Part shown: positions 100 to 40,187 of the stretch, piece after piece
How positions within the stretch are numbered: position 1 is the first letter of the stretch
How the letters are laid out: every line of letters starts with the position of its first letter
NCBI GenBank assembly: GCA_015486845.1
Contig: WFQU01000060.1
Coordinates: 1 to 40,187 of the forward strand
DNA from: Anaerolineae bacterium
GTDB taxonomy: Bacteria > Chloroflexota > Anaerolineae > JAADDB01
Reading direction: 5' to 3'
DNA length: 40,187 nucleotides
Notes under the pieces: model-generated
Told to the model about the DNA's origin: nothing
Database searches by the model: none
The model's input: only the letters and a program-made list of their open reading frames with translations
Program-made: the position numbers and the translations under genes

Positions 100-420
100 T
101 AAATTTTCATTCGCTGTGGTGTGCCGTAGGCTCATGATAACTCCCTTGAAAATAAACTTCTCTGGAGGGTAGCCGAGGGCAATGCCCTCGGCTACCCTCT
201 ACCTTGTCCGGCAATTAGAAATCGCTGCTACAACTGCGAAACCTGCCTGCGCAGGTTGCATGCTAATCGCCGTAGGGCGATTTTGCAAACGTTGCCGCGA
301 CTTTTAGTCGCTGGGCCAAATTGCTACCCCCGGCCCCCAATTCTGGGGGTGTGTTGTTGCTCCTCCTAAGGTTGGGGGACAGGGAGCGTTTTCAGCCGCT
401 ATGGTACGCCGCAGGCCCAT
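100..420 (-). repeat. Intergenic palindromic repeat mosaic, copy 1
   Basis: The first 446 bases hold no convincing gene. From about 100 to 420 there is a reverse-oriented copy of a modular repeat found again at 8176-8381, 19401-19916, 26392-26975 and 39824-40140. In order it holds a start-codon-like module (near 100-145), a near-perfect palindrome (165-199), a core of about 113 bases (203-315) built from small inverted repeats such as AATCGCC/GGCGATT and CCTGCGCAGG, and a C-tract module near 325-365. No transposase or terminal repeats are visible. Bases 1-99 show nothing I recognise. Confidence 0.85.
165..199. repeat. 35-bp near-perfect palindrome
   Basis: Arms GAGGGTAGCCGAGGGCA (165-181) and its exact reverse complement (183-199) are separated by one base. 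A shorter version with 13-bp arms sits at 8355-8381, next to another copy of the repeat core. It would form a strong hairpin or cruciform. It may act as a terminator in either direction, but no T-run follows. Confidence 0.85.
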
Positions 421-3165: not shown

Positions 3166-3239
3166 GCTGATCTCAAATATATTACGCCCGCAATACGAAA
3201 ATTCCTGTTATTAAACCCGGTTCATACTATTGGCCACGA
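3166..3239. repeat. 74-bp dispersed repeat, copy A
   Basis: This stretch upstream of the fusion-amidase gene matches 17788-17861 with only a few substitutions and no gaps. Both copies lie upstream of minus-strand genes and are preceded by the motif GCTGATC seen throughout the window's spacers. It has no coding potential and its function is unknown. The remainder of 3111-3361 shows nothing else clear. Confidence 0.8.
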
Positions 3240-3361
3240 TCAAGCGCATACCAACGCACGGCGACAACACTATGTAAGCGCTCGTTGCCAACAGGATGGC
3301 AGCGGATAGCAGAAAAAGTTGTGCACTGAATTTCCTGCCAATGCGGCAGGACTTCAACGTG

Positions 3362-8175: not shown

Positions 8176-8381
8176 GTTGGGGGCCGGGGGAGCGATTCGG
8201 CCCAGCGACTGAAAGTCGCGGCAACATCTGCAAAATCGCCCTACGGCGATTAGCCTGCAATCTGCGCAGGCAAGTTTCGCAGTTGTAGCAGCGATTTCTA
8301 ATCGCCGGACAAAGCAGACTGCGTTGATCAGCGCTCTATTTTTTGGAGGAAGGAGTAGCCGAGGGCAATGCCCTCGGCTAC
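8176..8381 (+). repeat. Palindromic repeat mosaic, copy 2, forming an operon leader
   Basis: It holds the G-tract module (GGGGGCCGGGGG), the core repeat (8201-8312), the GCGTTGATC module and the GTAGCCGAGGGCA palindrome (arms 8355-8367 and 8369-8381). The orientation is opposite to copy 1. The element lies between a consensus promoter and the PadR gene, so its hairpins should be present in the mRNA leader. Confidence 0.85.
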
Positions 8382-19400: not shown

Positions 19401-19916
19401 GAGTCATCATGGGCCTTCGGCCTGCCTGCGCGGGCACGCAGACAAGCACACCACAGCGGCTGAAAATGCCCCCTACCCCCCAACCTTGGGGGCCGGGGGT
19501 AACGGATCCGGCCCAGCGACTCAAAGTCACGGCAACATCTGCCAAATCGCCCTACGGCGATTAGCAGGCAACCTGCGCAGGCAGGTTTCACAATTGTAGC
19601 AGCGATTTCTAATCGCCGGGCGAAGCAGCCTGCGTTGATCTGCGTCCCACTCCCGTGCGCCGGCCCCTTGCCGCCGCGGCGGCGGGTACGTCAAGATAAG
19701 GTCCGCTGCCAAGAGGCTGCTTAACACCAGCCCCTTTCTAAGGGGCTTATTATTTACGTAGCACGGGGATTTGACCCCCGTGCGCTCGGGCGGCCAACCC
19801 CGTCAATTAGGAGTTCAACTTCTCGAAGAAGTTGAACTCCTTTAAAGAAAACCTGATTTTTTATCTGCGTGCGCAGCCTGCGTTGATCTGCGTCCCATCT
19901 TATTTTCAGAGAAGTT
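19401..19916 (+). repeat. Composite palindromic repeat, long copy X
   Basis: A multi-hairpin element of about 516 bases that corresponds, module by module, to 26392-26975 in the same orientation. It includes the start-codon-like module, the core (19512-19623), a GC-rich CCGCCGCGGCGGCGG segment, hairpin AGCCCCTT/AAGGGGCT (19729-19747), hairpin GCACGGGG/CCCCCGTGC (19761-19783) and the AGGAGTTCAACTTCT palindrome (19809-19841). It fills most of the 800-base spacer between the site-2 protease and the MMPL gene. The part nearest the protease (19187-19400) shows nothing else. Confidence 0.88.
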
Positions 19917-24824: not shown

Positions 24825-26015
24825 TTAGTCCGGAATCTTCGCCAAAGCTTGGGCGAAATCGGCAATGAGATCGTCGCTCTCTTCAATGCCGGCGCTGAAT
24901 CGCACTAAATTATCGCTGACCCCTATTTCAGCCCGTTCGACCGGCGTGAGATTGTAATAACTCAGCAACGCCGGCTGTGAAACCAGACTCTCCACGCCGC
25001 CCAAGCTGGGCGCGATGGCACTAAGTTGCAGCGCGTCCACAAAATGGGCTGTCTCCATCAGGTCTGCCGCCACAGTGAAGCTCACCACGCCGCCGCCGCC
25101 GCGCAGCTGTTGCTGGGCGAGAGCATAATCGGGGTGGCTCGGCAGACCGGGGTAGAAAACTGTGGTTATTTTGGGGTGTTGCTCTAAGTAGCGAGCTACG
25201 GCTAAACCGTTTTCGTTCTGGCGCTGCACACGCAGTGCTAAAGTTTTCAGCCCACGCAAAAGGAGGTACCCGTCGCCCGGCGAAAGCGTGTTGCCCAAAG
25301 AACCTTGCAACGCCCGCACCGGTTGTACCCGCTTCGCGGCGCCGACTACCGCCCCGGCCAGCAAATCGTTGTGCCCGGCTAAATATTTAGTGGCGCTGTG
25401 CAAGACTAAGTCAATGCCATACGACAGCGCTTGCAAATTAACCGGCGTGGCAAAGGTCGCATCGATAACCGTCAAAATATCATGATCCCGCCCCAAGGCC
25501 GCAACGGCCGCCAAATCAACTACCCGCAAAAAAGGATTAGTCGGCGTTTCCGAGAAGATCATTTTCGTTGTCGGGCGCAAGGCTGCGGCAATAGCTTCCA
25601 CCCGCGGTGCCACAAGCGTAACTTGCACCCCCACTTGCCGCAGAAAGTTCTCGCTGAATAGCCGGCTATGCCGATAAACATCGTTGGTAATAACTAAATG
25701 ATCGCCCGGGTGCAAATAAGCGAGGAAAAGTGTCGTCACGGCCGCCATACCACTGCTCAACAATAGTGCGTCTTCACCGCCCTCTAAAGCGGCAATCTTC
25801 TTCTCAGCGGTGCGCACCGTGGGATTACCATAACGCCCATATTCCACCCGCTCACCGTTGTTTCCGCCACCCTTCTGGGCCATGACAGAAATTAACTCCG
25901 CAGTGGTATGAAAGACAAACGGTGCGCTATGAACAACTGGCATGGTCACGCTGTGGTAACTGTGATTTGATTCTCCGGCGTGAACCGCTAACGTACTGAC
26001 ATGTTGTATTGTCAT
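24825..26015 (-). CDS. Trans-sulfuration PLP enzyme (cystathionine gamma-synthase / lyase or O-acylhomoserine sulfhydrylase type)
   Basis: Cys/Met metabolism enzyme of 396 residues. The ATG at 26015 has AGGAGG six bases upstream; a longer reading to 26126 would run into the terminator and riboswitch. The PLP-binding lysine is K210 in HSATKYLAGHND. Other family marks are EYGRYGNPT (58-66), SSGMAA (87-92), ETPTNP (156-161) and IDATFATP (184-191). Upstream lie a SAM-I riboswitch and terminator, so expression falls when S-adenosylmethionine is plentiful, which favours a role in methionine biosynthesis. The exact reaction among family members cannot be told from sequence alone. Confidence 0.93.
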   Translation of the reverse strand: MTIQHVSTLAVHAGESNHSYHSVTMPVVHSAPFVFHTTAELISVMAQKGGGNNGERVEYGRYGNPTVRTAEKKIAALEGGEDALLLSSGMAAVTTLFLAYLHPGDHLVITNDVYRHSRLFSENFLRQVGVQVTLVAPRVEAIAAALRPTTKMIFSETPTNPFLRVVDLAAVAALGRDHDILTVIDATFATPVNLQALSYGIDLVLHSATKYLAGHNDLLAGAVVGAAKRVQPVRALQGSLGNTLSPGDGYLLLRGLKTLALRVQRQNENGLAVARYLEQHPKITTVFYPGLPSHPDYALAQQQLRGGGGVVSFTVAADLMETAHFVDALQLSAIAPSLGGVESLVSQPALLSYYNLTPVERAEIGVSDNLVRFSAGIEESDDLIADFAQALAKIPD

Positions 26016-26076
26016 TACTTCCCTCCTGGGACAATTCGCGAGAAGGGAGCGGCAGGGCAGAAAAACAGGAGCTAAG

Positions 26077-26103
26077 AAAAATCCTCTCCTTCGGGAAGAG
26101 AGG
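26077..26103 (-). terminator. Riboswitch-controlled intrinsic terminator
   Basis: On the minus strand CCTCTC pairs with GAGAGG around a short loop, followed by ATTTTT (26081-26076). It lies between the riboswitch and the start codon of the PLP enzyme, so it is the expression platform. Confidence 0.85.
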
Positions 26104-26127
26104 CGCTGATAACCATCATGACACATC

Positions 26128-26237
26128 CTCTCATCTTCCAGAAGAATTCTGCCGGAATTGGCACCACGGTTTAGATTATACTAAACCAGGTTGCCGAGGC
26201 TTCACAGGGCCGGTCCCTCCGCCTCTCTGGATAAGAG
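26128..26237 (-). promoter_or_regulatory. SAM-I (S-box) riboswitch
   Basis: A 110-base aptamer read on the minus strand. P1 pairs CTCTTATC (26237-26230) with GATGAGAG (26135-26128). Between them are the conserved AGAGGCGGAGGGACCGGCCC, GTGAAGCC, CGGCAACC, a variable P3-type hairpin (GGTTTAG/CTAAACC) and GGTGCCAATTCC. All parts match the S-box consensus. It is followed by an intrinsic terminator and then the trans-sulfuration gene. Confidence 0.96.
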
Positions 26238-26391: not shown

Positions 26392-26975
26392 GCGTCATCA
26401 TGAGCCTTCAGCCTGTCTGCGCGGGCACGCAGACAAGCGCACCACAGCGGATGATGCTCCCACTTTGGGGGGAGCAATACACCCCCAGAATTAGCGGCCG
26501 GGGGTAACGATTCGGCCCAGCGACTAAAAGTCACGGCTACATCTGCAAAATCGCCCTACGGCGATTAGCAGGCAACCTGCGCAGGCAGGTTTCGCAGTTG
26601 TAGCAGCGCTTTCTAATCGCCGGGCGAAGCAGACTGCGTTGACCTGCGTACCATTCCGGTTCGCCGGCCCCTTGCCGCCGCGGCGGCGGGGTACGTCAAG
26701 GTAACGTCCTTTGCCAAGAGGCTGCTTAACACCAGCCCCTTTCTAAGGGGCTTATCATTTACGTAGCACGGGGATTTGACCTCCGTGCGCTCGGGCGGAG
26801 AACGCCGTTGATAAGAAGTTCAACTTCTCGCAGAAGTTGAACTTCTTAAAGGGAGCCTGATTTTTTAGACGCTGCGTCAACTGATTTCCAGAGGAGGCTA
26901 TTTTTCGACCATTATTTTTTATCTGCGTGCGCAGCCAGCGTTAATCTGCGTCCTATTTTATTTTCAGAGGAGTTA
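26392..26975 (+). repeat. Composite palindromic repeat, long copy Y
   Basis: The second long copy, matching 19401-19916 with many small changes and an extra stretch of about 65 bases near its end. It holds the core (26516-26627), the GCCCCTT/AAGGGGC hairpin (26734-26752), the GCACGGGG hairpin (26766-26788) and the TAAGAAGTTCAACTTCT palindrome with 17-bp perfect arms (26812-26848). It ends directly in the ribosome-site/start module that precedes rpiB. Confidence 0.88.
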
Positions 26976-32577: not shown

Positions 32578-33840
32578 TTATTGGAACTGAAACCCCTCCT
32601 GCTCGAGCTTAAGTCCACGCGCCAGCATATGCGTGATCAGCGGTTGCAAGTCGGCCAAAATCGGATAGCCTTGCACCCGTTCTAAAAGACGCCGGTCGTT
32701 CAACGTCAGCGGCTTAGCCCAACGGGCGTGAGCCTCCAACGTGGCTATATCCATACGAAACGGGACAAAGCGCGGCGAAACCAGCTTGCGCAGTTGGGCC
32801 AAGATGTTCAGCCCCCCATAATCCAGATCGGCCCAGACCTGCAACGGCACATCGGGCGGTAACGTCTCCGTCAGGCAACGCAACACATGCCGCACGGGCG
32901 GGGCCGGATTACCCCACAGACAGAGCGCGGCCAGCCCGTCACCCTCGTGGCGGATCAATTCGTAAAACGACGCCAGGTTCTCCACGCAGACAATGCGCCG
33001 GGCAGAGGTTGTATCCACGCTCACGCGGCTCGTGCGGGCAGCCATCAGCGCGGGGATACCGACGGCCGGATAAAAATTAGCCAGTGAAGTGACCTGACCA
33101 GCGGGGTCTACCAGACGCCAGGGGCCGTAGAGATAGACATGGGTGGGGTTGGCGACCAGCCCCAGTTCTCGCAGCGCCTCGTTGGGGGTCAGATGGCGAT
33201 AAGCGTGACGGCGCGATAGCGTCGCCAGGGCGCCTTTCAACCTTTCGAAGAGCTTGCTGTCGTTGAACACCCGCACGCTGAAAACGCGATACGGCGTCTC
33301 CTCTTCGATCTGGTCGAGGGCAATCATGGCCGCCAGTAGATGACGATTGAAGTTAGGGTCGGCCAGGATGAACGGGGCCGGCGATTTGCCGGCGCGCAAC
33401 TGGCTCAACGTCCGGTCGATCGCTAACCGCCGCCAGTCCTCCGCCGCGAAGCGAAAGCGATCACCTAACAACAGCTCGCGCAAGACCGCGCGCTGGGCCG
33501 CCAGGGGCTCACGTTCCAACCAGGGAAAGAGGTCGGGCGCGTGTTCCGGCACCAGGGTAACCGCCTCCAGCAAATGCCCCTCCTCGCCCGGCAGCCAGAG
33601 CAAGTGCACCAAACCGTGCGCGGCCATCTTGCCCAATTGCTCGTTGGTCGTCTGGCGCGGGGCCGGATCGAGCTGGCTGTTGTAGCCGGGCAAATCGAGC
33701 AGGCTCAGATGCACGCGGATGGCCCGCCGGATGGGGCGTTGGGGGTCGCGCCGTTCGTAAATGTCCAACAGGGCGTTAATGACGGCCGCAACGTCGGGGG
33801 AAGGGGTGAAGGGCAAATGCAAAGTTATAGGCACGCACAT
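32578..33840 (-). CDS. jetD: Wadjet defence protein JetD (Toprim nuclease subunit)
   Basis: The nuclease of the Wadjet system, which cuts small circular DNA once the JetABC motor has stalled on it. The protein has 420 residues. The C-terminal Toprim-like domain keeps its metal-binding acids: E287 in VENLASFYEL, and D338 and D340 in WADLDYGGLNI. The N-terminal part (about 1-230) is the DUF3322-like arm, ending in a helix-rich region. It starts 14 bases after the jetC stop with a weak ribosome site, so translation may be coupled. It is the last gene of the operon. Catalytic residues appear intact. Confidence 0.9.
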   Translation of the reverse strand: MCVPITLHLPFTPSPDVAAVINALLDIYERRDPQRPIRRAIRVHLSLLDLPGYNSQLDPAPRQTTNEQLGKMAAHGLVHLLWLPGEEGHLLEAVTLVPEHAPDLFPWLEREPLAAQRAVLRELLLGDRFRFAAEDWRRLAIDRTLSQLRAGKSPAPFILADPNFNRHLLAAMIALDQIEEETPYRVFSVRVFNDSKLFERLKGALATLSRRHAYRHLTPNEALRELGLVANPTHVYLYGPWRLVDPAGQVTSLANFYPAVGIPALMAARTSRVSVDTTSARRIVCVENLASFYELIRHEGDGLAALCLWGNPAPPVRHVLRCLTETLPPDVPLQVWADLDYGGLNILAQLRKLVSPRFVPFRMDIATLEAHARWAKPLTLNDRRLLERVQGYPILADLQPLITHMLARGLKLEQEGFQFQ

Positions 33841-33854
33841 TCTCGCATCGTCTC

Positions 33855-36800
33855 TTATGTCTCCAGGCGTTCGGCCATCTCACGTTTGTCGATCTCTAAC
33901 ACAAAGGCGTGATTGTTCTGGCGGACGACGGTACGGACGCTATCAACGTAAGGCAACAGGCCGCCGGCCTTGTCGGGTGGCGTGGCGAGGACCACCTGCA
34001 AACCGGTGTCCACCATGAATTTCAGGGCGCTGGCGGTGCGGGCGGTATCCATTTTGCCAAATGCCTCGTCAAAGAGGGCCAGCCTGATGGTGTCGGAGGG
34101 ACGGGGCTGATTCAGACGGTAGGCCTGGGCGAAGCTGGCAGCCATGGCCACGTAAAAAGGCGTGGTGGTTTCGCCCCCCGATTTCTTGGTGCTGATCTGG
34201 CTGTGGAGGGCCCGGTCGCCGTTGGGATAATGGATGCGGATATCGTAAGCTAAATAGTTACGGTAATCTTGCAAACGGCGCAACTCAGGTGACAGTTCGT
34301 CGTCCGGGCCAATCGTGAGGCGCTCGAAAAGTAGGTCCCAGCCTTCCTGGTGCTGGCGGCGAAAATCGCTGTCGAAAAGGGAAGCACCCAACACGGCCCG
34401 GCTATCCATGATCATGTCGTAAACATGGCGCAAGTCGGGGGCCGGCTTAGTGATGAACTCGTAGCGTTCGCCGCCGAAACGCAGGCGGGCCAGGGTCGCG
34501 TTGAGGTAACCAAGCTGAGCCCGAGCATCCTCGATCTGCTCGCGCAGGCGATGGATGAAGTTCTCCACCAACTCCTGCTCGGCCAGAGCCCGTTGATGGG
34601 CGACGCGTTCCTCATACTCCGGCAATTCCGACTCGACGTACTTCCGGCGTTCGATCATGTAACGATTGGCCTCTTCGTCGTCATCGTAGCCAAAATCGTG
34701 GTGTAAACTATACGCCTGTTTGGCCTCACGCAGCCTGTCACGCGCTCGCGCCTCGGCCGTCGTGTAGTCACCCTCGTAGCGCGTCGCGTTCTCTAACACG
34801 GTTTCCAAAGCCTGGCGCTCACGTCGCCGTTGATATTCCTTCGTGACGTCCTCCAGCATCTCGCCAGCATCTTCGAACAGCAAATACTGGTGGGAAAGCT
34901 CGGTAGCGACCGTGGCCTGCTGCTCCAGGTCAGGGATCACCTCGGTATCCAGCACCTCCATCCGGGTTTGCAGACTACCGATGTCCCGCTCGGCCTCGGC
35001 TAATCGCGCCTGGCGCTCGTCGACGGCAGTGCGACAACGCGCTACTTCGGCCTGGAGCGCCGCGATGGTATGCGTATCCAGGTCTGCCAATTCCCGGCGC
35101 AATGCGGCCAGGGACGCCGTTAGTTCGGGCAGACGTATCAGGGCCAGCCAATCACGTTCGAGTTCGATCAGGCCACGCACCCGGCCTCGGGTCAAATCCA
35201 GACGTTGTTCCAGCTCGCCCAGTTGTGCCGCCAGGCCCGCCAACTCCTCACCGACAGCAGACAAACGCTCCTCGCGCTCTTCGATCTGCCGGGGAAGTGC
35301 GCGCTCACCGATGAACCAACGGCGATAGCGACGCGGGTCCAGATGACTGCTGCTGTAGTTGCGGCGCACAAAGCATTCACGTGTAACAGCCCGGCGGTGT
35401 TCACGTAACGCTTCCAGGGTATCGCACTCGACGTAGCCCCCCAGCAACAAATCAACGTAGGCCCGAGCAGCCGCGTGGTCAGTCTGCACCTCGCCGGCCA
35501 AACGCCCGGCACCGCTCCGGCGGATCCTGCCCTCTCCCACGGCGCGCAAGATGCGGGCGCTATCCGGCAGGCCGACGCCGTGCAGATTATCTTTGAAACG
35601 ACGGTCCCGGTAAATGCGCATCGCGGCGTTATAGTGGGTCGGCGGCACCAGCAGGTGAAAGCGAGCCGCGCCCAGCACCCCCTCTACGGCGTCCTGCCAG
35701 GCGTCGTCGGGAATTTGCAGCGTCTGGCAGAGGTAAACAACATCCTCTGGCTCAAGACCCAGCTCGGTCTGCAACAGGCGTCGGAGACGCGCTGCCGCCG
35801 GCGCTTCAGCCTCATAGCTGGCGTCGCGGTTGCCGGTGCGTAACTGAGCGATCTCCTGCTGCAGGCGGTCACCCTCCTCACGCAGGGCCCGCACCCGATC
35901 GGCCAGTAAAGCGCGCTGATCAGCATAAACATGCCCCAACGCTTCGAGCACAGGCTGTAAGTCGGCAATCGCCGCCAGCACCGCGGCCCGTTCACCAACC
36001 ATTTTCTCTTCCTCAGCGGGCAGGTCGCTAAACGCCGCTACTTCGGGCGGGACAGGTTGGCCGTCAGAGGTGAGCAGGTCGCGCAGGGTCTGCATAGCAG
36101 CCACTTCGGCGGCCAGCGCCGCGGTGAGGTCAGCTTGGCGACGGCGCATGGTCTCCAACTCGGCACTTTGGGCGGCGATGGTCATGCGCAATTCCTGTTG
36201 GCGGGTCGCGGTGGTATCGGTTTGCAGGGCAATCTGGGCCTGGAGCAATGCTTCCTGAGCGATCTTGAAACTTTCCTGCAAGCCATCCCGGAGCAGTTCA
36301 GCGCGTTGTAAAGCCAGATCGACCTCATCCCGCTCCAGCCGGCGATGTTTGAGCTCACCTAACACGGTATCGGCCTCGGCTTGCCGACGGACATAGCCGT
36401 TGGTGATGCGGCGCCTGCGATTGGCCAGGCGCTCCTGGTCGTGTTCTTCGATGCGATCGAGTTCAGCGATGCGTTCGCGGATGTCGGTCACCAACTGCTC
36501 GAAGTGACGTAGCGTCTCCAACTGTTCTTGCAGCGTTTTGACATCCACCAGGTTTTCGTCTAACAGATAGTCACGGACGAAATCGCGGATATTAGTCAGC
36601 GGGCTGAAGGCCACACCCTTGACGATCTTGGCCGGGAAGCTGTCTTTGAGCTGGCCCAAACGGTTGAGCAGGTGCAGGCGATAGTCTTGCAGGCGGGTGA
36701 AAACCTGCGCCCGCGCGCCCACAGGTAGGGCAAAATGCTCCAGGTGGCGACGAAAAGCCCGCGTGTCGAACAGTTGGCCGGGGGTCTTGAAAAACCAGGC

Positions 36801-37199
36801 GTCGTTCAGCTCAGCGTTGTGAACGATGAAATAGGTCACGTCGGGGGCGTGATTGTCCTGATAGGCATCGATGACCGCACCATGCACGAAATAACTGCCG
36901 TCGGGGTTGGCGAATTCGAGCGCCACCAGGCCGGTAGTGTCGCCGCGCAAGTAGCGCCGGCCCTCGATGCCCAGCTCACCCCGCACGTAAGAGCTCAGCG
37001 TGCGCCGGCTGCCGGACATGGCAGCCAGGTTGAACCTGACGTCGCGCTGGCCGCCCACCAGCGCGAACTGGATGGCGTCGAGGATAGTGGATTTCCCCGC
37101 GCCATTAACGCCGATGAAATAGGTGGTGCCCTGGCAGTGGATGGTGCTGTTTTCGAAGAGGTGCCAGTTGACCAGCCGGATGCGGGTAAGTTGTTTCAT
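33855..37199 (-). CDS. jetC: Wadjet defence protein JetC (SMC/MukB-like ATPase)
   Basis: Motor subunit of 1114 residues. The N-terminal head has Walker A GVNGAGKST (30-38). Long coiled coils follow (roughly 230-430 and 640-870), rich in Glu, Arg, Leu and Gln, with a globular hinge between. I see no CXXC zinc hook, so the hinge is SMC/MukB-like and not Rad50-like. The C-terminal head has the ABC signature SGGE (1007-1010), preceded by TKK, and Walker B LALFDEAF (D1044, E1045). JetC dimers extrude DNA loops with JetA and JetB. The ATG overlaps the jetB stop by four bases. The domain order and length fit the family. Confidence 0.93.
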   Translation of the reverse strand: MKQLTRIRLVNWHLFENSTIHCQGTTYFIGVNGAGKSTILDAIQFALVGGQRDVRFNLAAMSGSRRTLSSYVRGELGIEGRRYLRGDTTGLVALEFANPDGSYFVHGAVIDAYQDNHAPDVTYFIVHNAELNDAWFFKTPGQLFDTRAFRRHLEHFALPVGARAQVFTRLQDYRLHLLNRLGQLKDSFPAKIVKGVAFSPLTNIRDFVRDYLLDENLVDVKTLQEQLETLRHFEQLVTDIRERIAELDRIEEHDQERLANRRRRITNGYVRRQAEADTVLGELKHRRLERDEVDLALQRAELLRDGLQESFKIAQEALLQAQIALQTDTTATRQQELRMTIAAQSAELETMRRRQADLTAALAAEVAAMQTLRDLLTSDGQPVPPEVAAFSDLPAEEEKMVGERAAVLAAIADLQPVLEALGHVYADQRALLADRVRALREEGDRLQQEIAQLRTGNRDASYEAEAPAAARLRRLLQTELGLEPEDVVYLCQTLQIPDDAWQDAVEGVLGAARFHLLVPPTHYNAAMRIYRDRRFKDNLHGVGLPDSARILRAVGEGRIRRSGAGRLAGEVQTDHAAARAYVDLLLGGYVECDTLEALREHRRAVTRECFVRRNYSSSHLDPRRYRRWFIGERALPRQIEEREERLSAVGEELAGLAAQLGELEQRLDLTRGRVRGLIELERDWLALIRLPELTASLAALRRELADLDTHTIAALQAEVARCRTAVDERQARLAEAERDIGSLQTRMEVLDTEVIPDLEQQATVATELSHQYLLFEDAGEMLEDVTKEYQRRRERQALETVLENATRYEGDYTTAEARARDRLREAKQAYSLHHDFGYDDDEEANRYMIERRKYVESELPEYEERVAHQRALAEQELVENFIHRLREQIEDARAQLGYLNATLARLRFGGERYEFITKPAPDLRHVYDMIMDSRAVLGASLFDSDFRRQHQEGWDLLFERLTIGPDDELSPELRRLQDYRNYLAYDIRIHYPNGDRALHSQISTKKSGGETTTPFYVAMAASFAQAYRLNQPRPSDTIRLALFDEAFGKMDTARTASALKFMVDTGLQVVLATPPDKAGGLLPYVDSVRTVVRQNNHAFVLEIDKREMAERLET

Positions 37200-37813
37200 G
37201 CCTCATCCGCCTCCTGCACCCGATACCGCCTGACCCAGGCCTCCATCTCGTCCGCCGTTTGCACGGGCAGGATCATCTTGATCGAGCCGCGCAGGCGCAA
37301 ACGGGCTTCGCTGTCCCGCACGTCGATGCTGCGCCCTTCCAACGTTTCGATCAGCCCCAGCCGGCGCAGATGGCGCAAAATCCGCTCATATTGACCGATA
37401 CCCAGAGCGCGCTCCTTGCCGGTAATGGTGCGGTATTCCTCACGCACCTCGCCAATAGTGACCACCGGATCGGCGGCCAGGCTCAATTGCTCGACCTGCT
37501 CCTCGTAAAGTTTGCGCAGGACGACGATCATCAAGGTTTCGTCGAGCTTGTAACGCGTCCGGCAGTAGCTGAAATTAGACACGATTTGGAAGACACGATG
37601 GTAATCATCATGCAGCAAAGTGAAGCCGGCCAGGGCCAACAACGTCTCGAACACGGGCCGGTGCCGGTAGACCGTGTAGTAATCGTCCTTGTCGGTCTCT
37701 ACATCCTGGTAGAGAAAAGGCCGGCCCAGCAGCCGGTTGATGATGCGCGGCACGTCCCGGCGCACTCGCTCGGGCAGGCCGGTGGATTCCAAAACGGTAG
37801 CGGTGTTGAACAT
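37196..37813 (-). CDS. jetB: Wadjet defence protein JetB (MukE-like winged-helix subunit)
   Basis: Small KITE-type partner of the JetC/JetA complex, 205 residues, resembling the DUF4194/MukE-like group. Recognisable parts are IINRLLGRPFLYQDVETDKDDYY near the N-terminus, a helix-rich centre (LDETLMIVVLRKLYEEQ) and a winged-helix region with LRHLRRLGLIETLEG. Its ribosome site, GGCAGG, lies in the last codons of jetA, six bases away. Its stop overlaps jetC by four bases. Assignment rests mainly on its position between clear jetA-like and jetC genes and on its size. Confidence 0.85.
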   Translation of the reverse strand: MFNTATVLESTGLPERVRRDVPRIINRLLGRPFLYQDVETDKDDYYTVYRHRPVFETLLALAGFTLLHDDYHRVFQIVSNFSYCRTRYKLDETLMIVVLRKLYEEQVEQLSLAADPVVTIGEVREEYRTITGKERALGIGQYERILRHLRRLGLIETLEGRSIDVRDSEARLRLRGSIKMILPVQTADEMEAWVRRYRVQEADEA

Positions 37814-37819
37814 GGTCTG

Positions 37820-39268
37820 TTACCTGCCTCGCTCGAAGGTAAAGGGTTTTTTCACCAGGCGGAACGGCTGCACCAGATATGGACCGATCTCCAGCGGGTC
37901 ACCGTCCGCCGGCTCGACGCCGTAATCGACCTCGGGGTGATGCCCATAAGCCAGGGTGAAGATCGCCCATTGCATGTCGGCAAAGAACTCCGGCGGCAGC
38001 TCACTGGCACGCAGGCTATGGTTGCCGTTGAGGAACCGGTGCACGAACTGCTGAACCTTGCGCGGTGTGATGATGGCGCTGATCTCCTGCAGGGTTGCCA
38101 GACGCAAGCTATCAGCATCACCCGGATCGAGCACGGGCTTGACGATAGTGGCCGGCGTGAAAGGCGCCCGCCTGGTCGGCATACTGTAAAAACTATTGAT
38201 GTCAGGCGCGTCCACCGGATCATACTTCAACGCCGGCGCATCCTTTGGCAAGAATTCCAGGCCGGCACCTTGTAAGCGTGCTAACTTACCGGCTAACGCC
38301 GCCAGCCGGTCCTTGAAGTTGCCATTGGCACTGCCCAATTGGTAGCGGACCTGACGCAGCGAGGTGCGCAAATACTGAGCGTGACGGCGGTCAATTTCGT
38401 CCAGCAAAGGGTCCAGGCTCTCCAATTGTTCGATGATGAAATGCAGATAGTGGCTGATCTCGCTGGCCGCCTGGGCCGGCGAAAAGCGACGTTGCGTGGC
38501 CAGATCGGCCGCCGCGTGATCAAGCCACGCGTCATCCAATTGCCAGGTTTGCAGGCGGGTGATGATAGCTCTCCTGTAACGCGAAACGTGGTCACTGGTC
38601 TTGAGCGCGTGGTAAGCGGCACCCAAAGCCGGTGCGTAGTCGTCGAACTGCATGCGCATCAGCTCGGGGACGGGGCGATCTTTGGTTACACGCTCGGTGT
38701 AGCGGCGGATGTTCTGATTCAACTCGTTGAGACCACGCACCATCTGCCGCACGTTCTCGTAGGCTTGCGTGACCGCCAGAGCGGGCGAGAACTCCTCGTT
38801 CTCGCTGGTGAGCAGTTGGTGGGCCGCGTAAAGCTGACCGGTGTACTCACGCGGCTTCTGTTGCTGGATGTTACGGAAAGCCTCTAACAGGGTGAAAGCA
38901 TAATCGGGCAGGATGATATACTCGGTGTAATCAGCGTGCTGCTCGCGCTCGAGCCAGCCGGCCTCGGCCAACCGACGCAGCATCCAACTGGCGTATTCCG
39001 GCACCGACCTCTCGCCAATCACACTGGCTTCCCCGTCCGCGACAGCACCAGCAGCGATCTCGGCAACCGCTTCGGCATTGCTCAAATAGTCCACAATTTC
39101 AGCCAGCACCACTTCCCGCGTCAGACCAAAGCGGTTGAACTCAGCCAGATCGTAAATGCGCAGCAGAACCGCCATGTAATGACGTTGTAAATTGGCGTAG
39201 CCGCTACTCCCCAAGATGTTGAAAAGCTGAGGCGGCAAACTGTCAAACGGATTCGGGGATCTATTCAT
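37820..39268 (-). CDS. jetA: Wadjet defence protein JetA (kleisin-like subunit)
   Basis: Kleisin-type subunit of 482 residues that links the JetC heads. The N-terminus (FDSLPPQLFNILGSSGYANLQ) and the following winged-helix-like region match JetA-type proteins. The middle (about 150-330) is helical and probably coiled. The C-terminal domain (about 390-482) is rich in aromatic residues and ends in LVQPFRLVKKPF. Its ATG overlaps the stop of the upstream XRE gene by four bases, so the regulator and the defence genes are translationally coupled. I do not assign the Wadjet subtype with certainty. Confidence 0.87.
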   Translation of the reverse strand: MNRSPNPFDSLPPQLFNILGSSGYANLQRHYMAVLLRIYDLAEFNRFGLTREVVLAEIVDYLSNAEAVAEIAAGAVADGEASVIGERSVPEYASWMLRRLAEAGWLEREQHADYTEYIILPDYAFTLLEAFRNIQQQKPREYTGQLYAAHQLLTSENEEFSPALAVTQAYENVRQMVRGLNELNQNIRRYTERVTKDRPVPELMRMQFDDYAPALGAAYHALKTSDHVSRYRRAIITRLQTWQLDDAWLDHAAADLATQRRFSPAQAASEISHYLHFIIEQLESLDPLLDEIDRRHAQYLRTSLRQVRYQLGSANGNFKDRLAALAGKLARLQGAGLEFLPKDAPALKYDPVDAPDINSFYSMPTRRAPFTPATIVKPVLDPGDADSLRLATLQEISAIITPRKVQQFVHRFLNGNHSLRASELPPEFFADMQWAIFTLAYGHHPEVDYGVEPADGDPLEIGPYLVQPFRLVKKPFTFERGR

Positions 39269-39555
39269 ACAGAATCCCTTGAGTAATCGGCGGGGCGGAT
39301 AGGCACGGGATCCATTACCCCCCCTACCCCATCACGCCAAACCAAAATATCACCCGGCACACATTGCAACACGCCACACAATCTGGCTAACGCCCCCAAA
39401 TCCACGTAACGCGCCGTGCCGGCATCAAGCCGATAAACCAGGTCCTTAGGAACATCCGCCCTGGCAGCTAAGCCACGCAGGGAAAGCCGTTGGCCCGTAG
39501 CCGCCTGGAGTTGTCCTAACAAAATGGTCAGTCGATTGGCAGTGCTAATTTCCAT
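39265..39555 (-). CDS. XRE/Cro-type helix-turn-helix regulator at the head of the Wadjet operon
   Basis: A DNA-binding protein of 96 residues. The HTH core runs from about 22 to 75 (LRGLAARADVPKDLVYRLDAG, then LGALARLCGVLQCVPGDILVW), close to the small YozG/Xre-type regulators. AGAGGA lies nine bases before the ATG. The gene overlaps jetA by four bases and is preceded by its own promoter with several CAGATGT/ACATCTG motifs, which are candidate operators. It probably represses the defence operon until a trigger appears. The tail after residue 75 (MDPVPIRPADYSRDSV) shows no known domain. Confidence 0.85.
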   Translation of the reverse strand: MEISTANRLTILLGQLQAATGQRLSLRGLAARADVPKDLVYRLDAGTARYVDLGALARLCGVLQCVPGDILVWRDGVGGVMDPVPIRPADYSRDSV

Positions 39556-39627
39556 CAGATGTTATCCTCTACCTTTTCGCACATCTGTTCCAATTAGTCC
39601 GACTGTACCACGCTTTAGTCCAGATGT
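39556..39627. promoter_or_regulatory. Candidate XRE operator motifs
   Basis: CAGATGT occurs at 39556-39562 (touching the start codon) and at 39621-39627 (overlapping the -35). Its reverse complement ACATCTG lies at 39581-39587. The last two are inverted arms whose centres are 40 bp apart, about four helical turns, flanking the -10 and the start site. This suits looping or cooperative binding by the XRE protein. It is an inference from repeats only. Confidence 0.5.
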
Positions 39628-39630
39628 CAA
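39602..39630 (-). promoter_or_regulatory. Promoter of the XRE-jetABCD operon
   Basis: On the minus strand a consensus TTGACA (39630-39625), a 17-bp spacer and TACAGT (39607-39602) lead to a predicted start near 39595, about 40 bases before the XRE start codon. Confidence 0.75.
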
Positions 39631-39823
39631 GACGGATGTGCGCTTCAGTAGACAGGAACCCTTCCGTAATTCCATCATCCGGGTCAATCCAGAACCATAA
39701 CGGCACATTGGTAGGTTTTCCACATGAACAACACGCCGGGCACAGACGGCCGGCGGATACAGCGGTGGCGTTGATACCAACGCTACCGCCGGTACAGCGG
39801 CTGAGAACCTCTCTATGTCGAAT

Positions 39824-40140
39824 AGAAGTTCAACTTCTGCGAGAAGTTGAACTTCTTAAAGGGAGCCTGATTTTTCGGATGCTCCGCGCCTTGGCGCCGC
39901 CGCGTCAACTGATTTTGAGGGGAGCAACACACCCCCAGAATTGGGGGCCGGGGGGCACTTTCGGGGCAGACTTGAGAAGAAATGCAACGGAGATAGGCAT
40001 GTCGTTAGTTGATGATGGCAGATGGCTCCCGGCGACTAAAAGTCACGGCAACGTCTACAAAATCGTCCTACGGCGATTAGCCTGCAACCTGCGCAGGCAG
40101 GTTTCGCAGTTGTAGCAGCAATTTCTAATCGCCGGACAAG
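39824..40140 (+). repeat. Palindromic repeat mosaic, copy 5
   Basis: It begins with the AGAAGTTCAACTTCT palindrome (39824-39838 and 39842-39856), followed by the same TAAAGGGAGCCTGATTTTT stretch as copy Y, a C-tract module (near 39920-39955) and the core (40031-40140). It continues toward the window edge with the GTTGATCGGCGCTCTATTTTT module. The spacer 39631-39823 has no gene. The right end of the unit lies outside the window. Confidence 0.85.
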
Positions 40141-40187
40141 GCACATCAACGTTGATCGGCGCTCTATTTTTCGGAGGAGAGGGTGGC

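What the first reader, a model, noticed from the sequence alone, without database searches (positions are those of the whole stretch)
32578..39630. Complete Wadjet (JetABCD) operon headed by a coupled XRE repressor gene
All four defence genes are intact: JetC has Walker A, signature and Walker B, and JetD has E287 and D338/D340. The operon starts with a small XRE gene overlapping jetA by four bases, with its own consensus promoter. Most descriptions of Wadjet list only jetA-D. A built-in transcriptional switch would explain how a potentially harmful DNA-cutting machine is kept silent and induced by an incoming plasmid.
Basis: partly seen in the sequence, partly recalled or inferred. Interest (0 to 1): 0.75.

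Follow-up and report, generated by a model that had tools for sequence, protein, structure and literature searches.

The report
Wadjet operon with XRE and SOS box
This is a complete plasmid-destroying Wadjet defence operon from a Chloroflexota bacterium; it begins with a small DNA-binding protein gene that always travels with it, and its promoter carries what looks like the cell's DNA-damage (SOS/LexA) switch, a control not described for Wadjet in the papers I could search.

Summary
In detail: jetA-D are intact (type I Wadjet), headed by a 96-aa HTH_26/XRE gene that overlaps jetA by 4 nt behind a TTGACA-N17-TACAGT promoter. The XRE is a fixed part of one Chloroflexota Wadjet lineage: directly upstream of jetA in all 22 testable loci, absent from distant Wadjets. 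Just after the -10 lies GGAACAGATGTGCG (39578-39591); in 16 of 22 orthologous promoters this site is a perfect GAAC-N4-GTTC, in six (window included) it has one mismatch. That is the lexA autoregulatory box of the same genomes, and of class genomes without the XRE. A matrix built only from lexA promoters ranks this site first of 40,174 window positions, and the xre-jet promoter first in 19 further loci. A separate dyad, TTGTC-N10-GACAA, at or upstream of the -35 is the candidate XRE operator. Best model: dual repression by LexA and XRE, so SOS (DNA damage, incoming single-stranded plasmid DNA) releases Wadjet. The window's own box is the weakest of the 22. Binding by LexA and by XRE is inferred, not tested.

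The parts
39265..39555 (-). xre, 96-aa HTH_26/XRE protein, first gene of the operon
   Evidence: HTH_26 2.5e-9; profile hits at E<1e-28 only beside jetA, one cut by a contig end; 30 invariant residues in 13 homologues
37820..39268 (-). jetA (kleisin-like subunit of Wadjet type I)
   Evidence: PF18982 1.6e-84; PADLOC JetA1 7e-91
37196..37813 (-). jetB (KITE-like subunit)
   Evidence: DUF4194 2.2e-23; PADLOC JetB1 8.6e-36
33855..37199 (-). jetC (SMC ATPase), Walker A at residues 30-37, signature at 1007-1010
   Evidence: PADLOC JetC1 4.4e-264; motifs
32578..33840 (-). jetD (Toprim nuclease), E287, D338, D340
   Evidence: JetD_C 9.6e-15; PADLOC JetD1 7.4e-74; residues invariant in alignment A2
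39265..39268 (-). ATGA overlap of the xre stop and jetA start (translational coupling)
   Evidence: overlaps of 4 to about 23 nt in most related loci
39625..39630 (-). -35 hexamer TTGACA
   Evidence: TTGACA in 22 of 22 orthologous promoters
39602..39607 (-). -10 hexamer TACAGT, TG-extended
39578..39591 (-). candidate LexA (SOS) box GGAACAGATGTGCG just downstream of -10
   Evidence: Rank 1 of 40,174 window positions with a matrix made only from lexA promoters; orthologous site perfect in 16 of 22, one mismatch in 6 of 22
39616..39635 (-). candidate XRE operator O1, CCGTC-N10-GACTA, overlapping -35
   Evidence: Rank 2 of 40,163 window positions with a dyad matrix trained on other loci
39636..39655 (-). 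second, weaker candidate XRE operator O2, CTGTC-N10-CACAT, abutting O1
   Evidence: 7 of 10 matches to TTGTC-N10-GACAA at the conserved offset of -25 from TTGACA
39566..39569 (-). likely ribosome-binding site GAGG of xre
   Evidence: Read from the sequence

Best explanation
A complete type I Wadjet operon, xre-jetA-jetB-jetC-jetD, transcribed from one near-consensus sigma-70-type promoter under two repressors. (1) The co-transcribed XRE protein binds a TTGTC-N10-GACAA dyad at or just upstream of the -35 and limits its own operon. (2) LexA binds a GAAC-N4-GTTC box at about the transcription start and represses until RecA on single-stranded DNA triggers LexA self-cleavage. Incoming conjugative or damaged DNA, or breaks made by JetD itself, would thus raise Wadjet output. 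Shown here: gene content, constant xre-jetA linkage, overlap, promoter, identity of the box with lexA boxes. Inferred: binding by LexA, binding by XRE, repression rather than activation by XRE, the inducing signal.
For: Wadjet identity. XRE linkage: 22 of 22 testable loci; no jetA-free XRE of this family in 396 class genomes; mirror-tree r=0.69, Mantel p 1e-4. LexA box: in 22 of 23 lexA or lexA-like promoters of XRE-bearing genomes and strong in 11 of 13 lexA promoters of genomes without the XRE, so the box does not depend on XRE. In the window's own genome the only AGAACN4GTTCT palindrome is in the lexA promoter. The lexA-derived matrix gives the xre-jet promoter as best site in 20 of 20 loci and nothing above 5.4 in 12 distinct XRE-less Wadjet promoters; outside lexA and jet promoters only 2 such sites in 184 kb. 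XRE dyad: a matrix from the O1-class promoters ranks the promoter dyad first in the whole locus in 8 other loci. LexA of this genome keeps the Ala-Gly cleavage site (IRAGYPIP), Ser (EGDSM) and Lys (TLKRY). GAAC-N4-GTTC is the LexA motif of B. subtilis and Gram-positives (PMC3323433); conjugation induces SOS in recipients (PMC2958807).
Against: The window's own box is the weakest of 22 (score 11.8; weakest training lexA box 14.3), and its nearest relatives also have worn right halves, so LexA control may be weak or being lost in this sub-clade. The promoters are orthologous, so the 22 are not independent. XRE binding to either motif is not demonstrated; XRE might instead bind the GAAC box. No expression data.
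Confidence: 0.72

Rival explanations
1. One reading: XRE alone is the switch; it binds the GAAC-N4-GTTC palindrome as its own operator and is released by a plasmid-borne signal. The likeness to the LexA box is coincidence.
For: The palindrome is present wherever XRE is, and absent from Wadjet promoters without XRE. A palindrome overlapping the start site is typical of XRE operators (general knowledge).
Against: The same box is in lexA promoters of the same genomes and of genomes without this XRE. Another conserved dyad is available for XRE. The odd variants GTGC and GGAAC seen in jet promoters also occur in lexA promoters.
Confidence: 0.12
2. In the window's genome the LexA layer has decayed: XRE is the only working regulator, and LexA control persists only in relatives with perfect boxes.
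For: Lowest matrix score of 22 promoters; sub-clade mates are also imperfect. The window has the second-best dyad match of 40,163 positions for XRE.
Against: GTGC-type and GGAAC-type boxes serve lexA itself in relatives, the GGAAC one in the window's own family (G503). It is still the best LexA site in 40 kb.
Confidence: 0.2
3. XRE is an activator bound at about -50 (O2) that is needed for promoter firing, with LexA as the only repressor.
For: In O2-class loci the dyad ends 5 bp upstream of -35, a possible activator position.
Against: The promoter is near consensus in all loci, so an activator is hardly needed; in O1-class loci the dyad straddles the -35.
Confidence: 0.15
4. The XRE protein is a structural or DNA-loading accessory of the JetABC complex rather than a regulator.
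For: Exclusive linkage to one JetA clade, overlap with jetA, co-divergence.
Against: Cro/C1-type HTH family and a conserved dyad in its own promoter.
Confidence: 0.08

Closest known systems
Wadjet type I (JetABCD; MksBEFG/EptABCD relatives)
   Same: All four subunits, order A-B-C-D, Walker and Toprim residues
   Different: Extra coupled xre first gene and a LexA-type box; searching the held Wadjet review for regulation terms found no Wadjet regulator (PMC10586767)
LexA regulon / SOS boxes of the GAAC-N4-GTTC type (Gram-positive, and lexA promoters of this class here)
   Same: Same palindrome at a promoter; some lexA promoters also place a box after -10, as here
   Different: The controlled operon is an anti-plasmid defence machine; no held paper has the words Wadjet and LexA with SOS response, and the four with Wadjet and SOS are on other subjects by title and abstract
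CapH+CapP, CapW and CapK+CapS regulators of immune operons
   Same: Regulators encoded upstream of defence operons that control them in response to DNA damage (PMC13373217)
   Different: No peptidase, WYL or kinase partner seen beside this xre; the damage link here would go through the host LexA
BrxR (WYL) autorepressors of defence islands
   Same: Regulator gene tied to defence operons; BrxR homologues co-localise with Wadjet among others (PMC9122601)
   Different: WYL-domain protein of another family

Membership tests
Wadjet type I | jetA, jetB, jetC, jetD intact, co-directional, in that order | tested here: met
Wadjet type I | JetC Walker A, ABC signature, Walker B | tested here: met
Wadjet type I | JetD Toprim acidic residues | tested here: met
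   E287, D338, D340 invariant in five aligned JetD
Wadjet type I | Restriction of small circular plasmids | not testable with these tools
   Needs a transformation assay
Cro/C1-type (XRE) transcription regulator | HTH domain of the Cro/C1 family | tested here: met
   HTH_26 2.5e-9, above its cut-off
Cro/C1-type (XRE) transcription regulator | Binds its own promoter | tested here: inconclusive
   Conserved dyad TTGTC-N10-GACAA found with a cross-validated matrix; binding not tested
LexA regulon (SOS) | Box matching the lexA autoregulatory box of the same genome and clade | tested here: met
   the window copy has one core mismatch and the lowest score
LexA regulon (SOS) | LexA with cleavage site and Ser/Lys in the same genome | tested here: met
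   Residues read from the translated lexA; domain hit
LexA regulon (SOS) | Induction by DNA damage | not testable with these tools
   Needs expression data
CapH+CapP module | Adjacent peptidase gene beside the HTH repressor | tested here: inconclusive
   None inside the operon; upstream only 632 bp remain to the contig end

The most novel reading that the evidence does not exclude
A whole Chloroflexota lineage of Wadjet belongs to the SOS regulon: LexA plus a dedicated, co-evolving XRE regulator jointly gate an SMC-nuclease anti-plasmid system, so that single-stranded DNA from an incoming plasmid arms it.
Probability: 0.6. Interest if true: 0.78.

Novelty: new variant of a known kind. Interest (0 to 1): 0.62.

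Why it matters
How Wadjet expression is controlled is little described: I found no Wadjet regulator in the held literature. A conserved SOS box would link plasmid cleavage to the signal that conjugation itself produces, and makes a simple test possible: does DNA damage or mating raise jetA? It would also tie a DNA-cutting defence to the host's main damage response, with possible positive feedback from breaks made by JetD.

Tried and rejected
Single-sequence PDB searches of XRE, JetD and JetC gave nothing; the XRE profile gave only marginal HTH hits. The generic dyad-register scan did not isolate one clear register, so a cross-validated matrix was used instead. The half-site CGACAAA after -10 was considered as a further XRE site, but I saw no consistent partner arm. 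LexA boxes were sought upstream of distant Chloroflexota Wadjets and four plasmid-borne Wadjets of Bacillota and Pseudomonadota: none. One of those four has an HTH gene upstream on the same strand (L131, not overlapping jetA); its promoter has no box either.

Full report
Five co-directional minus-strand ORFs run xre (39555-39265), jetA (39268-37820), jetB (37813-37196), jetC (37199-33855), jetD (33840-32578). Pfam, and PADLOC's type-I models, identify all four Wadjet subunits. JetC has GVNGAGKS at 30-37 and SGGE at 1007-1010; JetD E287, D338 and D340 are invariant among five homologues. The window is a complete 40,187-base contig of a 3.28-Mb, 182-contig genome; its named relatives are Chloroflexota MAGs, several labelled Anaerolineae or Anaerolineales.

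The XRE gene is a fixed part of this Wadjet lineage. JetA relatives of 55% identity or more all have it immediately upstream, where the upstream DNA is present; Chloroflexota Wadjets with JetA at 26-32% identity do not. A profile of 13 XREs searched in 396 genomes of the class gave 18 strong hits. Seventeen are followed by jetA; the eighteenth is cut by a contig end. Two weak hits (E about 1e-13) are a different, jetA-free gene. Over all sources, 22 of 22 testable loci are linked. XRE and JetA distances correlate (r=0.69, Mantel p=1e-4). The xre stop usually lies at or inside the first codons of jetA: the overlap is 4 nt in the window and up to about 23 nt elsewhere, with one locus (L028/L068) showing a gap instead. 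This is the pattern of translational coupling (inference).

The promoters upstream of xre share TTGACA in 22 of 22 and have a TATAAT-like -10. After the -10 every one carries GAAC-N4-GTTC with no mismatch (16) or one mismatch (6); in shuffled promoters the rates are 0.08% for none and 2.2% for at most one. The site lies 30 or 37-41 nt from the start of TTGACA, so it overlaps or closely follows the expected start site.

That palindrome is the LexA box of these bacteria. In the window's genome the only AGAACN4GTTCT is in the lexA promoter, TTGACAAAGAACGCATGTTCTGCTATAAT. Of 23 lexA or lexA-like genes from XRE-bearing genomes, 22 have it with at most one mismatch, mostly in the -35/-10 spacer. In 12 class genomes without the XRE hit, 11 of 13 lexA genes have a strong site, one a weak one, one none; so the box belongs to LexA whether or not XRE is there. 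Variants that look like damage in the window's site (right half GTGC; first base G) occur in lexA promoters of relatives: AGAACAAATGTGCG in G605 and G623, AGAACACTTGTGCT in G412, GGAACATTTGTTCT in G503 of the window's own family. In G208 the lexA box itself sits after the -10, as in the jet promoters. GAAC-N4-GTTC was described as the B. subtilis and Gram-positive LexA motif (PMC3323433).

As a blind test I built a matrix from 22 lexA boxes only. In the window the best of 40,174 positions is 39578-39591, in the xre promoter (score 11.8; 0.22% of random 110-nt window stretches reach it). In 19 further loci the best site of the whole locus is again the xre promoter. Among 183,713 positions of assorted loci, 18 reach the window's score and 16 of those lie in lexA or xre-jet promoters; one of the other two is upstream of a gene beside lexA. 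None of 12 distinct XRE-less Chloroflexota Wadjet promoters (best 5.4) nor of four plasmid-borne Wadjets has a site. The window's box is nevertheless the weakest of the 22, below every lexA box used for training (minimum 14.3).

A second conserved element is TTGTC-N10-GACAA. It straddles the -35 in one set of loci (8-9 of 10 matches in L016, L073, L074, L076-L079) or lies exactly 25 nt upstream of TTGACA in another set, perfect in three loci. A matrix trained on the first set picks the promoter dyad as the best site of the whole locus in eight loci outside it (L032-L036, L002, L014, L067), and ranks the window's own dyad (39616-39635) second of 40,163 positions. It does not rank first in the remaining loci tested (L028-L031, L069, L080). 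I take it as the XRE operator; this is inference.

Model. XRE (autorepression at the -35) and LexA (block at the start site) both hold a strong promoter. SOS removes LexA; entry of single-stranded plasmid DNA by conjugation is a known SOS trigger (PMC2958807). What releases XRE is unknown; it has no sensor domain, so it may only set the level. Known DNA-damage switches of immune operons (CapW, CapH+CapP, CapK+CapS; PMC13373217) act through other proteins. No held paper holds Wadjet, LexA and SOS response together. Absence from this library is not proof of novelty.

Scores. Wadjet plus XRE is near certain. LexA control of the clade I put near 0.8, of the window's own promoter lower; XRE autoregulation through the dyad about 0.65.

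Noticed in passing
window 202-315, 8201-8350, 19512-19644, 26516-26648, 40028-40185; also L037 790-946: A dispersed intergenic repeat of about 115-160 nt, five copies in 40 kb plus one beside lexA on another contig, about 85-93% alike, folding into a long branched hairpin (z -3.6 to -5.7); no Rfam match.
   Followed up: partly
window 19802-19871, 26807-26876, 39817-39886: A second short repeat with a strong hairpin (GAAGTTCAACTTCT...AGAAGTTGAACTTC) near three of those copies, one of them about 190-260 nt upstream of the xre promoter.
   Followed up: no
L014 (promoter near 3230-3243), L035 7755-7768: In two relatives the xre start codon ATG lies inside the LexA box a few nt after the -10, suggesting a leaderless mRNA whose start codon LexA would cover.
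   Followed up: partly
G443, G507, G632, G640, G579 (L096-L100): A second lexA-like gene, in three genomes close to the first, usually with two GAAC-N4-GTTC boxes flanking the -10.
   Followed up: no
L047, L056 (G318), L060 (G361), L037 664: Other GAAC-N4-GTTC-like sites lie ahead of what look, by eye, like DNA-translocase-type ATPase genes, possibly a further SOS target in this class.
   Followed up: no
window 26128-26237 and 24825-26126: A SAM riboswitch directly upstream of a Cys/Met-metabolism PLP enzyme gene, an ordinary arrangement.
   Followed up: no
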